64,000 nucleotides of DNA, from positions 1,796,501 to 1,860,500 of the forward strand of contig NZ_CP045384.1 of NCBI RefSeq assembly GCF_009363615.1. Direction: 5' to 3'. Both the position numbers and the translations under genes were made by a program. This DNA comes from Ruegeria sp. THAF33 (lineage in GTDB: Bacteria > Pseudomonadota > Alphaproteobacteria > Rhodobacterales > Rhodobacteraceae). Positions 43,656-63,294 of the stretch are shown one piece after another (position 1 is the first letter of the stretch; each line of letters opens with the position of its first letter). The notes below the pieces were generated by a model, which was not told where the DNA came from, did not search any database, and saw nothing but the letters and a program-made list of their open reading frames with translations.

Positions 43656-45050
43656 TTACATGTGGATCACGCGGCCATAAGCGTCCAACACGCTTTCATG
43701 CATCATTTCTGACAGAGTCGGGTGCGGGAAGACCGTGTTCATCAGGTCTTCTTCGGTGGTCTCCAGCTGCCGCCCAACCACATAACCCTGAATCAGTTCC
43801 GTGACTTCCGCGCCGATCATATGGGCCCCCAGCAGTTCGCCAGTCTTGGCGTCGAACACGGTTTTGATCAGACCTTCCGGTTCGCCCAGAGCAATGGCCT
43901 TGCCGTTGCCGATGAAGGGGAAGCGACCCACTTTGATGTCATAGCCCAGCTCTTTGGCCTTGGCTTCGGTATATCCCACCGAGGCCACTTGCGGCTGACA
44001 ATAGGTACATCCGGCGATGCTTTCGGGCTTGACCGGATGCGCATGCTGGCCCGCGATCAGATCGGCAACCATGACACCTTCGTGGCTGGCTTTATGTGCA
44101 AGCCAGGGCGCGCCCGCGATGTCACCGATCGCATAAAGGCCATCGACGCCGGTGCGGCAATATTCATCCGTCACCACATGCGTGCGGTCGATCTTGACGC
44201 CCAGCGCCTCGAGCCCGAGGTTTTCGACATTCCCAACAATCCCGACAGCCGAGATAACGGTGTCGAACTCGTGCTTTTCAACCTTGCCCTTGACCTCGAT
44301 ATGAGCGGTGACCTTGCCCTTGCCGCGATCCAACTGCTTGACAATGGCTTTTTCCATGATGGTCATGCCTTGCTTGGTGAAGGCTTTCTTGGCCAAGGCA
44401 CTGATTTCCGCATCTTCCACGGGCAACACGCGGTCCATCACCTCGACCACCGTCGTATCGGCCCCCAGCGTGTTGTAGAAACTGGCAAATTCGATTCCGA
44501 TCGCGCCCGAGCCGATGACCAGCAGCTTCTTTGGCATCCGGGGCGGCTGCAGCGCGTGCTTGTACGTCCAGACCAGATCGCCGTCAGCCTCGAGACCGGG
44601 CAGTTCGCGGGCCCGTGCGCCGGTTGCAAGAATGATGTTCTTGGCCGTCAGTTCTTCGGTGCCCTTGTCGGTCTTGACGCTGACCTTGCCTTTTGCGGGG
44701 ACTGTTGCCTCACCCATCACCACGGCGACCTTGTTCTTCTTCAGCAGATGGCCGATGCCACCTGAAAGCTGCCCGGCGACGCCACGGGATCTTTTGACGA
44801 CCGCGTCCAGATCGTAACCGATCTTGTCGGCCTTCAATCCGAAATCCTTGGCGCGTTCCATCAGATGGAACACTTCGGAGGACCGCAGCAATGCCTTGGT
44901 CGGAATGCACCCCCAGTTCAGGCAGATGCCACCAAGGTGCTCCCGCTCGACCACGACGGTTTTCAGTCCAAGCTGGGCCGCACGGATGGCGGCGACATAG
45001 CCACCGGGGCCAGCCCCGATTACGATCAGATCATAGGATTGTGCAGCCAT
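43656..45050 (-). CDS. lpdA: Dihydrolipoamide dehydrogenase (E3)
   Basis: A 464-residue FAD-dependent E3 subunit that reoxidises dihydrolipoamide and reduces NAD+ in the pyruvate and 2-oxoglutarate dehydrogenase complexes. FAD site GAGPGGYVAAIRAAQLG, redox-active disulfide GGICLNWGCIPTKALL, NAD site VIGSGAIGIEFASFYNTLGA and the C-terminal HPTLSEMMHE catalytic His are all present. A GAGAGGA precedes the ATG. An operator identical in 18 of 19 bases to one upstream of pdhA lies 31-49 nt before the ATG, so it is probably coregulated with the E1/E2 operon 16 kb away. Confidence 0.96.
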   Translation of the reverse strand: MAAQSYDLIVIGAGPGGYVAAIRAAQLGLKTVVVEREHLGGICLNWGCIPTKALLRSSEVFHLMERAKDFGLKADKIGYDLDAVVKRSRGVAGQLSGGIGHLLKKNKVAVVMGEATVPAKGKVSVKTDKGTEELTAKNIILATGARARELPGLEADGDLVWTYKHALQPPRMPKKLLVIGSGAIGIEFASFYNTLGADTTVVEVMDRVLPVEDAEISALAKKAFTKQGMTIMEKAIVKQLDRGKGKVTAHIEVKGKVEKHEFDTVISAVGIVGNVENLGLEALGVKIDRTHVVTDEYCRTGVDGLYAIGDIAGAPWLAHKASHEGVMVADLIAGQHAHPVKPESIAGCTYCQPQVASVGYTEAKAKELGYDIKVGRFPFIGNGKAIALGEPEGLIKTVFDAKTGELLGAHMIGAEVTELIQGYVVGRQLETTEEDLMNTVFPHPTLSEMMHESVLDAYGRVIHM

Positions 45051-45080: not shown

Positions 45081-45099
45081 TAGTTTACCGTTAAACTAT
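45081..45099 (-). promoter_or_regulatory. Palindromic operator upstream of lpdA
   Basis: On the minus strand the site reads ATAGTTTAACGGTAAACTA. The arms TAGTTTA and TAAACTA are perfect inverted repeats with a 4-nt spacer. Eighteen of its 19 bases match the site at 60873-60891 upstream of pdhA, at a similar distance from the start codon. This strongly suggests a shared DNA-binding regulator. Confidence 0.8.
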
Positions 45100-45263
45100 T
45101 TTCAGAAACGCATCAACACGCGTTCCCGCGACAAATGAGACGCAGGGTAAACCTAACCTGAATATGCGGATTTCAGCCTATACGCAGGCCCATGCTATGG
45201 CTAGAACAGAAACGCCGACGCCGCTCGGACATTTGTGAACACATTGAATTCAAGGGGTTTACC

Positions 45264-60748: not shown

Positions 60749-60872
60749 TCCTTTTTGGGCTGCCGGACGCCTTCGGACCATCGTCGCATCGCTTTGCCTG
60801 TCGGCTGCGCCACGCCCGCGCGGACGCTGCGTCACATTTCCCCTCGCCAGAAAGCCCCAAATGCTTTATGAG

Positions 60873-60891
60873 ATAGTTTAACGCTAAACTA
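60873..60891 (+). promoter_or_regulatory. Palindromic operator upstream of the pdh operon
   Basis: ATAGTTTAACGCTAAACTA, part of a longer perfect palindrome (10-bp arms, 60871-60880 and 60885-60894). It lies 27-45 nt upstream of the pdhA ATG. It is 18 of 19 identical to the site upstream of lpdA, so one regulator probably binds both. Confidence 0.82.
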
Positions 60892-60918
60892 TCTTGCCGA
60901 AAGGGGGAGATCGCCACT

Positions 60919-61908
60919 ATGGCTGCGCGAAAAACCACAAAGAAACCAAATGTTTCTGCGGAAGAACTCAAGACATACTACCGCGAGATGCTTCTGATCC
61001 GTCGATTCGAAGAAAAGGCGGGTCAGCTTTATGGCATGGGCCTGATCGGCGGATTCTGCCACCTGTACATCGGTCAAGAGGCGGTTGTTGTCGGGCTCGA
61101 AGCGGCAGCACAGGACGGCGACAAGCGGATCACCTCGTATCGTGACCACGGCCATATGCTGGCCTGTGGCATGGACCCGGGCGGCGTGATGGCCGAACTG
61201 ACCGGGCGCGAAGGCGGCCTGTCCAAGGGCAAGGGCGGCTCGATGCACATGTTCTCGAAAGAAAAGCATTTCTATGGGGGCCATGGCATCGTTGGTGCAC
61301 AGGTTCCGCTGGGCGCAGGTCTGGCCTTTGCTGACAAATACAAAGAGAACGGTGGCGTGACATTCACCTATTTCGGTGATGGCGCGGCCAACCAGGGTCA
61401 GGTCTATGAGACGTTCAACATGGCCGCTCTCTGGGATCTGCCAGTGGTCTTTGTGATCGAAAACAACCAATACGCCATGGGTACAGCGCAGGCGCGATCA
61501 ACATCGTCGCCAGACATCTACGTGCGCGGCGAGGCGTTTGGCATTCCCGGCGAGATCGTCAACGGTATGGATGTGTTGGCGGTTAAGGCCGCAGGTGAGA
61601 AAGCCGTGGCCCACTGCCGTGCGGGCAAAGGCCCTTACATCCTTGAGGTTAAAACCTACCGGTATCGCGGCCACTCGATGTCTGACCCGGCCAAGTACCG
61701 CACCCGCGAAGAAGTTCAGAAGGTCCGCGAACAAAGCGATCCGATCGAACATGTGCGCGAGCTGCTGCTGACCGGCAAACACGCAACCGAGGATGATCTG
61801 AAGGCGATCGATAAAGAAATCAAAGAGGTCGTCAATCAAGCCGCCGAATTCTCGAAAGAAAGCCCCGAGCCTTCCGTCGAAGAGCTCTGGACTGACATTT
61901 ACGCCTGA
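60919..61908 (+). CDS. pdhA: Pyruvate dehydrogenase E1 component, alpha subunit
   Basis: A 329-residue thiamine-diphosphate E1-alpha that decarboxylates pyruvate with E1-beta. The ThDP motif reads YFGDGAANQGQVYETFNMAALWDLPVVFVIENNQ, and RDHGHMLACGMDPG is typical. A GGGGGAG precedes the ATG. First gene of pdhA-pdhB-aceF. Confidence 0.96.
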   Translation: MAARKTTKKPNVSAEELKTYYREMLLIRRFEEKAGQLYGMGLIGGFCHLYIGQEAVVVGLEAAAQDGDKRITSYRDHGHMLACGMDPGGVMAELTGREGGLSKGKGGSMHMFSKEKHFYGGHGIVGAQVPLGAGLAFADKYKENGGVTFTYFGDGAANQGQVYETFNMAALWDLPVVFVIENNQYAMGTAQARSTSSPDIYVRGEAFGIPGEIVNGMDVLAVKAAGEKAVAHCRAGKGPYILEVKTYRYRGHSMSDPAKYRTREEVQKVREQSDPIEHVRELLLTGKHATEDDLKAIDKEIKEVVNQAAEFSKESPEPSVEELWTDIYA

Positions 61909-61923
61909 GAGGACGAATAAGAC

Positions 61924-62165
61924 ATGGCAACCGAAATTCTCATGCCCGCCCTTTCGCCCACAATGGAAGAGGGCACCCTGGCCAAATGGCTGGTCAAGGA
62001 AGGCGACACTGTAAGCTCTGGCGATATCATGGCCGAGATCGAAACCGACAAGGCGACGATGGAATTTGAAGCCGTTGATGAAGGCATCATTGGCAAGATC
62101 CTGATCGCTGAAGGTACCGAAGGGGTCAAGGTGAACACCCCTATCGCGGTTCTGGTGGAAGAAGG
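61924..62165 (+). repeat. Lipoyl-domain coding repeat (pdhB copy)
   Basis: About 240 nt that encode the lipoyl domain, close in sequence to 63309-63550 at the start of aceF. Many codons match and differences are mostly silent or third-position. The two blocks are 1.4 kb apart in direct orientation. Confidence 0.8.
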
Positions 62166-63294
62166 CGAAGACGCCTCTGCCCTGCCAGCGGCTGCCCCCG
62201 CAGCCGCAGCGGTGACCGAGGCCGCCCCTGCGGCGGTTGAGGCCCCCGCTCCTGCCGCTGCCCCCGCTGCTCCGGTCGTTGACCTGTCGCCCGATTGGCC
62301 CGCAGATGCAGAGATGAAGTCCGAAACCGTCCGTGAAGCGCTGCGTGACGCGATGGCCGAGGAAATGCGTGGTGACGAAGACGTCTACCTGATGGGTGAA
62401 GAAGTCGCCGAATATCAGGGCGCGTATAAAATCAGCCAAGGTCTGCTGGACGAGTTTGGCCCCAAGCGCGTTATCGATACGCCGATCACCGAGCACGGTT
62501 TTGCAGGCATCGCCGTTGGTTCAGCCTTTGGAGGTCTGAAACCGATTGTCGAGTTCATGACCTTCAACTTCGCGATGCAGGCGATCGACCAGATCATCAA
62601 CTCGGCCGCCAAGACGCTGTACATGTCCGGCGGTCAGATGGGTTGTCCGATCGTCTTCCGCGGCCCCAACGGCGCCGCCGCGCGCGTGGCTGCCCAGCAC
62701 AGCCAGGACTATGCTGCCTGGTACATGCAGATCCCCGGCCTGAAGGTGGTGATGCCCTATTCCGCAGCCGACGCCAAGGGCCTGCTGAAATCGGCGATCC
62801 GCGACCCCAACCCGGTTGTCTTCCTGGAAAACGAAATCCTCTACGGGCGTTCTTTCGACGTGCCGCAGGTGGATGATCTGACCATCCCGCTGGGCAAGGC
62901 ACGTATTTGGCGCGAAGGTTCGGATGTGACCATCGTCAGCTTCGGCATTGGCATGCAATACGCACTCGAAGCCGCCGACAAACTGGCGGAAGAAGGCATC
63001 AGTGCCGAAGTTATCGACCTGCGCACAATCCGCCCGATGGACACTGGCGCAATCATCAACTCGGTGATGAAGACGAACCGTCTGGTGACTGTGGAAGAAG
63101 GTTGGCCGCAAGGTTCGGTCGGCAGCTACATCAGTTCGGTCGTGATGCAGGAAGCGTTCGACTATCTCGACGCCCCGGTCATCAACTGCACCGGCAAAGA
63201 TGTACCGATGCCCTACGCCGCGAACCTCGAAAAGCTGGCCCTGATCACCACCGATGAGGTGATCGCCGCCGTCAAACAAGTGACCTACCGGTAA
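61924..63294 (+). CDS. pdhB: Pyruvate dehydrogenase E1-beta with lipoyl domain
   Basis: A 456-residue E1-beta. Residues 1-80 are a lipoyl domain (lipoylated Lys in [16 protein letters not shown]), followed by an Ala/Pro linker (about 85-125) and the E1-beta transketolase-like domain with [26 protein letters not shown] and [18 protein letters not shown]. This fusion is known in alphaproteobacteria. Its first 240 nt are closely similar to those of aceF. 15 nt after pdhA. Confidence 0.96.

What the first reader, a model, noticed from the sequence alone, without database searches (positions are those of the whole stretch)
60873..60891. Same palindrome controls pdhA and lpdA, 16 kb apart
The sites read ATAGTTTAACGCTAAACTA (pdhA, plus strand) and ATAGTTTAACGGTAAACTA (lpdA, minus strand, 45081-45099). 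They match at 18 of 19 positions, are perfect 7-bp inverted repeats with a 4-nt spacer, and both sit roughly 25-50 nt before the start codon. The E3 gene is not in the E1/E2 operon, so a common operator would keep the complex in balance. The site does not resemble the E. coli PdhR operator, and no regulator gene is adjacent to either. This may be an undescribed pyruvate-dehydrogenase regulon.
Basis: partly seen in the sequence, partly recalled or inferred. Interest (0 to 1): 0.75.

Follow-up and report, generated by a model that had tools for sequence, protein, structure and literature searches.

The report
Shared operator of pyruvate-node genes
Three unlinked genes around pyruvate in a Ruegeria-like marine bacterium and its relatives carry the same DNA switch, and comparative evidence points to an unnamed MarR-type repressor, encoded far away, as the protein that reads it.

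Summary
In detail: TAGTTTA-N4-TAAACTA palindromes lie 27 and 30 nt before pdhA and lpdA, far beyond chance. The genome has one more site, 26 nt before a malic-enzyme gene. Of 30 family-level exact sites fetched, 28 precede pdhA (15), maeB (9) or lpdA (4); all 80 named pdhA promoters fetched carry it with 0-4 mismatches. One genome also has it before aceE-aceF. It covers the likely -10/start region, so repression is inferred.

In three other alphaproteobacterial families the same site precedes a gene pair whose second gene encodes a MarR with a near-identical recognition helix. In genomes at least 90% complete, the pdhA site (up to 3 mismatches) is present in 26 of 29 with this MarR and 1 of 10 without.

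A 2015 paper already grouped malic enzyme and PDH genes of R. sphaeroides, but under the LacI protein RSP_1663 (CceR). My data favour reassigning this subset. Binding and effector are untested.

The parts
60872..60893 (+). Operator before pdhA: GATAGTTTA-ACGC-TAAACTATC (core 18-mer 60874-60891)
   Evidence: conserved before pdhA in 80 of 80 named loci with 0-4 mismatches
60867..60872 (+). -10-like TATGAG ending directly before the operator core (inferred)
   Evidence: TAnnA conserved at this place in an alignment of 73 pdhA loci outside Ruegeria
60843..60847 (+). CTCGC, conserved 27-31 nt before the operator core; role unknown
60919..61908 (+). pdhA, pyruvate dehydrogenase E1 alpha
61924..63294 (+). 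pdhB, E1 beta with a lipoyl domain, next gene downstream
45081..45099 (-). Operator before lpdA: A-TAGTTTA-ACGG-TAAACTA
45111..45116 (-). TTGATG, -35-like; a -10 at normal spacing would fall inside the operator (inferred)
   Evidence: TTG in 10 of 10 and TTGA in 8 of 10 lpdA promoters that I chose to align
43656..45050 (-). lpdA, dihydrolipoyl dehydrogenase (E3)

Best explanation
The palindrome is the operator of a small pyruvate-node regulon: pdhAB, lpdA and, elsewhere in the genome, maeB. The likely reader is a stand-alone MarR-family repressor (146 aa, G000:C1:3434751-3435188, between a nit-like gene and ubiG). Shown: the sites, the genes behind them, their conservation, and their co-distribution with this MarR gene. 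Inferred: a MarR dimer binds the palindrome over the -10/start region and blocks RNA polymerase; a signal from the pyruvate node (pyruvate, acetyl-CoA or similar; unknown) releases it, so that E1, E3 and malic enzyme rise together and malate can run through pyruvate to acetyl-CoA.
For: Only three sites in the genome, all before pyruvate-node genes. Of 30 family-level exact sites fetched, 28 precede pdhA, maeB or lpdA. aceE-aceF carries the site in G271. Of 9 exact sites outside the family in 289 class genomes, 3, in three families, precede a gene pair whose second gene encodes a MarR; the own genome has one relative of it, 46% identical, and the helix reads VTRGAMTNTL in 28 of 30 orthologues against VTKGA(M/I)TNTL in the three. 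Site and MarR go together: exact site anywhere 82 of 152 against 0 of 22 complete genomes; pdhA promoter 26 of 29 against 1 of 10. Promoter position.
Against: No binding data. Fisher values ignore relatedness; on supported branches of the trees only 3 independent pairs exist and the site follows in 2.8 of them, p 0.25. Seven of 18 scorable MarR-negative genomes do have a site with 0-2 mismatches; six of these are under 85% complete, but G247 is 93% complete. Three of 29 MarR-positive genomes have only 4-5 mismatches. No clean site at the MarR gene itself (best 3-6 mismatches in 31 loci). The site centre is a pyrimidine-purine step in 77 of 80 loci, which also suits LacI proteins (recalled).
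Confidence: 0.74

Rival explanations
1. The LacI-family global regulator CceR/GapR (RSP_1663) reads these sites as a longer-spaced form of its operator and controls PDH and malic enzyme as part of its glycolysis/gluconeogenesis switch.
For: Published prediction for R. sphaeroides (PMC4344238). In P. denitrificans without cceR the malic enzyme MaeB was lower on glyoxylate (PMC11323563, passages). The central pyrimidine-purine step suits LacI operators. My CceR candidate also correlates with the site when taken alone (28 of 34 against 4 of 10, p 0.015).
Against: In this genome 4 of the 8 best GTT-N6-AAC sites precede zwf-, pyk-, gap- and enolase-like genes, a different spacing. Close orthologues of the candidate are missing in G054, G068 and G109, which keep site and MarR, and present in G100, G161 and G222, which lack both. 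Within MarR-positive genomes the LacI makes no difference (28 of 31 against 3 of 3); within LacI-positive genomes the MarR does (28 of 31 against 0 of 3). That the candidate is CceR is my guess from its helix.
Confidence: 0.14
2. Some other transcription factor reads the site and the MarR only happens to share its distribution.
For: Only one other factor was used as control; the trees leave few independent losses; one MarR-negative, 93% complete genome keeps a site.
Against: The MarR lead came from gene neighbourhood in other families, independently of the distribution test.
Confidence: 0.1
3. The palindrome acts as a hairpin in the leader RNA rather than as a protein operator.
For: It is an inverted repeat shortly before the start codon.
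Against: Seven positions of the core (TT, A, T, AA, C) are invariant in 80 loci and the others nearly so; the likely start point lies within the repeat, so the RNA would hold only part of it (inferred).
Confidence: 0.02

Closest known systems
CceR/GapR (RSP_1663) regulon of Rhodobacteraceae
   Same: Central carbon genes under a palindrome with GTT and AAC arms; malic enzyme and PdhAB were predicted as members in R. sphaeroides (PMC4344238)
   Different: LacI family; sites in this genome before glycolytic-type genes have N6, not N8; distribution does not fit the pdhA sites
PdhR of E. coli and relatives (GntR family)
   Same: A transcription factor for PDH genes; PMC5343134 (passages) describes PdhR as pyruvate-responsive and controlling aceEF-lpdA
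   Different: GntR family; operator differs (consensus recalled); here E1 and E3 are unlinked and malic enzyme is included
MarR-family repressors
   Same: Small winged-helix protein, palindromic operator near the start point
   Different: Many sit next to their target (recalled); this one does not, shows no clean site of its own, and its proposed targets are central metabolism

Membership tests
MarR family (candidate regulator) | MarR-type winged helix domain | tested here: met
   PF12802 MarR_2 37 bits (cut-off 27), PF01047 26 bits (cut-off 24.6); weak matches to solved MarR structures, best E 7.6e-08
MarR family (candidate regulator) | Binds the palindrome as a dimer and releases it on a ligand | not testable with these tools
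   no binding data; only co-distribution and neighbourhood
CceR/GapR regulon | GTT-N6-AAC spacing, as at the glycolytic-type sites of this genome | tested here: not met
   pdhA, lpdA and maeB sites are GTT-N8-AAC or near it; N6 sites
CceR/GapR regulon | Site present where the regulator is present | tested here: inconclusive
   6 of 44 genomes contradict it in the informative direction (G054, G068, G109, G100, G161, G222), yet alone it correlates, p 0.015; identity of the LacI candidate with CceR unproven
PdhR (GntR) regulon | TTGGT-N3-ACCAA-like operator (recalled) | tested here: not met
   by inspection of the sites
PdhR (GntR) regulon | PdhR orthologue in the genome | not tested
   no search for GntR proteins was made

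The most novel reading that the evidence does not exclude
A stand-alone MarR repressor, present in most genomes of the family, is the dedicated pyruvate-node regulator of Rhodobacteraceae: it controls PDH (both unrelated E1 types), E3 and malic enzyme through one operator, is repeatedly lost together with its sites, and is distinct from CceR, to which these genes had been assigned.
Probability: 0.68. Interest if true: 0.6.

Novelty: new member of a known kind. Interest (0 to 1): 0.5.

Why it matters
PDH and malic enzyme together decide how these abundant marine bacteria turn C3 and C4 compounds into acetyl-CoA (general knowledge). A named candidate gene, three exact operators and a sharp prediction make this control testable in laboratory strains of Ruegeria or Phaeobacter, and would correct part of the published CceR regulon model.

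Tried and rejected
A LacI/CceR reader was my first idea, from the CG centre of the site and the published prediction; it lost the lead. The similar palindrome TAGTTTACACGAAAACTA, seen in several genus genomes between an Lrp-like regulator and an hppD-like gene (three loci read; names by my reading), was set aside as another system. The 12-mer match at G000:C1:1327441 extends no further and was dropped. Two of the 30 family-level sites have other neighbours: L058 before a threonine/serine dehydratase-like gene, L067 between a pterin-dehydratase-like and a peroxiredoxin-like gene (names by my reading). One further genus site (L045) precedes a gene with no evident pyruvate link. Six of the 9 exact sites outside the family showed no pyruvate link; one of them, L106, lies beside a MarR with a different helix. 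The AlphaFold model of the MarR was poor (mean pLDDT 57.8) and was not used.

Ten paper searches listed no paper that I recognised as describing a MarR controlling pdhA or maeB in these bacteria. The search for the operator letters listed 11 papers; going by title and abstract none is on Rhodobacteraceae, and I opened none of them. The library holds open-licence papers only and has no preprints. The 2015 mBio paper on CceR is recalled and was not seen.

Full report
Observation. The two sites are present as described: TAGTTTA-ACGC-TAAACTA ends 27 nt before pdhA and TAGTTTA-ACGG-TAAACTA ends 30 nt before lpdA. No other stretch of the window lies within three mismatches of the 19-mer, and none of 100 shuffles produced one. 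In the whole genome (4,632,958 bases, 5 contigs) TAGTTTANCGNTAAACTA with up to three mismatches occurs at three places only. The third, TGATTTAACATTAAACTA, lies 26 nt before a 757-aa gene. Its protein has the Pfam domains malic, Malic_M and PTA_PTB; the best NCBIfam model is NADP-dependent malic enzyme at 1016.9 bits, below that model's cut-off of 1178. I call it maeB.

Conservation in the genus. All 54 genus genomes have a match with up to two mismatches, but so does the backwards control, usually more often, so that number alone proves little. More telling: each of the 16 relatives whose matches were listed (G001-G016; the listing was then cut) has two zero-mismatch sites 15-19 kb apart, as the window does. 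Of these 16, nine sites beside maeB were read including the window genome's (G000, G001, G003-G008, G012, picked because they had a hit); all nine precede maeB. The closest named pdhA loci are Ruegeria, 91-97% identical.

Conservation in the family. An exact 7-4-7 site occurs in 92 of 198 genomes; the backwards control matches in 3. Of the 30 sites fetched, 15 precede pdhA, 9 maeB, 4 lpdA and 2 something else. Of 80 named pdhA loci (the best 80 of 585, hence close relatives) the promoter site has 0 mismatches in 41, 1 in 19, 2 in 16, 3 in 2 and 4 in 2; one shuffle each gave 4 to 8. Phaeobacter, Roseobacter, Sulfitobacter, Cereibacter, Rhodobacter and Paracoccus species are among them. The central step is CG 50, CA 15, TA 7, TG 5, other 3. 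In G271, of the same family, the same site stands 41 nt before an aceE gene (TIGR00759, 1455.2 bits, cut-off 859.9) followed by its E2 gene, besides the one before pdhA.

Promoter position. In 73 pdhA loci outside Ruegeria the letters T(-7), A(-6) and A(-3) before the operator are conserved, a -10-like block, together with CTCGC at -31 to -27. In ten lpdA promoters that I chose, TTG stands 18 nt before the operator in all ten, which would put a -10 inside the operator. An operator over the -10/start region fits a repressor; this is inference, no start points were mapped.

The published candidate. PMC4344238 (passages) predicted that the R. sphaeroides LacI protein RSP_1663 controls Mdh, PckA, malic enzyme, PdhAB and others through [A/G/T]GTT-N6-8-AAC[A/C/T], with two clusters by spacer. 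PMC4052901 (passages) named it GapR, with a 20-bp palindrome and mainly glycolytic targets. In this genome 4 of the 8 best GTT-N6-AAC sites precede zwf-, pyk-, gap- and enolase-like genes (names by my reading; the backwards control of that loose search gave more hits than the pattern, 127 against 66). The pdhA, lpdA and maeB sites are of the N8 form.

A MarR lead. Of 289 genomes drawn from the class, 13 have an exact site, 4 of them in the window's family. Of the other 9, three, in three families, have the site 10-31 nt (from its centre) before a Tat-signal protein gene whose next gene encodes a MarR-like protein. One of these three upstream proteins matches Pfam Nitroreductase, the other two match nothing in Pfam. 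One of the three MarRs was scanned and is MarR by Pfam; the other two align with it. The own genome has one relative of it: 46% identity, E 1e-24, 146 aa, MarR by Pfam, between a nit-like gene and ubiG. Of 30 orthologue loci examined, the best-scoring ones, 28 keep grxC, nit and ubiG near it and 2 keep two of the three. The presumed recognition helix reads VTRGAMTNTL in 28 of these 30 (two have one change) against VTKGA(M/I)TNTL in the three outside proteins. Where the 120 listed homologues bear a name it is only 'MarR family' regulator, Ruegeria pomeroyi included.

Co-distribution. I called the MarR absent where its best match was weaker than 1e-35: 31 of 198 family genomes (18 without match, 13 weak). 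An exact site anywhere: 89 of 167 with it, 3 of 31 without; in complete genomes 82 of 152 against 0 of 22, Fisher 2e-7. pdhA promoters were then read directly. Of the 70 complete MarR-positive genomes without an exact site I took the first 30 in handle order; 29 have a close pdhA (G083 does not), and their best matches have 1-5 mismatches (12, 7, 7, 2 and 1 genomes). Of 31 MarR-negative genomes 18 were scorable: 7 with 0-2 mismatches, 11 with 4-8. Six of the 7 are under 85% complete, where the gene may be missing from the assembly; G247, 93% complete, stands as an exception. At 90% completeness or more: 26 of 29 against 1 of 10 with up to three mismatches, p 9e-6; one of the ten, G222, has only a 58% identical PdhA. 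Of 22 complete MarR-negative genomes 11 lack a close PdhA altogether, against 1 of 30 MarR-positive ones.

Relatedness. On trees of PdhA and of PdhA+PdhB the MarR label needs 8 and 7 changes, at least 3 forced by supported branches, so absence is not one clade; both trees are weakly resolved. On supported branches the site goes with the MarR in 2.8 of 3 independent pairs, p 0.25. The Fisher values ignore relatedness.

LacI control. A LacI gene (L080, my best guess for CceR from its helix, unproven) was sought in 44 of these genomes. Close orthologues (E below 1e-100) are missing in G054, G068 and G109, which have MarR and site, and present in G100, G161 and G222, which have neither. Alone, the LacI also correlates with the site (28 of 34 against 4 of 10, p 0.015), but within MarR-positive genomes it makes no difference (28 of 31 against 3 of 3), whereas within LacI-positive genomes the MarR does (28 of 31 against 0 of 3, p 0.003). 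Against my reading, P. denitrificans without cceR had less MaeB on glyoxylate (PMC11323563, passages); this may be indirect.

Mechanism and verdict. Best reading: a MarR dimer represses pdhAB, lpdA and maeB by sitting on their promoters and lets go in response to a pyruvate-node signal, so that malate to pyruvate to acetyl-CoA is switched as a unit. The metabolic rationale is general knowledge. No clean site lies at the MarR gene itself. I hold the shared operator and its targets nearly certain, the MarR as reader about three in four, and the effector unknown. As a regulator it is a new member of a known kind; the gene set had a published precedent under another regulator.

Noticed in passing
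L043, L044, L047 (genus genomes G008, G013, G014): A similar palindrome, TAGTTTACACGAAAACTA, lies between an Lrp/AsnC-like regulator gene and an hppD-like gene (names by my reading of translations); probably that regulator's own operator.
   Followed up: partly
60843-60847 and the same place in 73 relatives: CTCGC is conserved 27-31 nt before the pdhA operator; it is not a TTGACA-type -35 box and may mark another factor or sigma preference.
   Followed up: no
L118 / L125 (G271): A family member with both PDH types carries the same operator before aceE-aceF and before pdhA.
   Followed up: partly
L058 (G142): Exact site about 120 nt before a threonine/serine dehydratase-like gene, an enzyme type that can yield pyruvate; single case, name by my reading.
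   Followed up: no
L109, L111, L112 (three other alphaproteobacterial families): The same operator precedes a Tat-signal protein gene followed by a MarR gene; the function of that gene pair is unknown.
   Followed up: partly
G070, G099, G106, G118, G123, G146, G154, G177, G179, G214, G246: Eleven complete family genomes lack both the MarR and a close PdhA; whether they use AceE instead was not searched.
   Followed up: no
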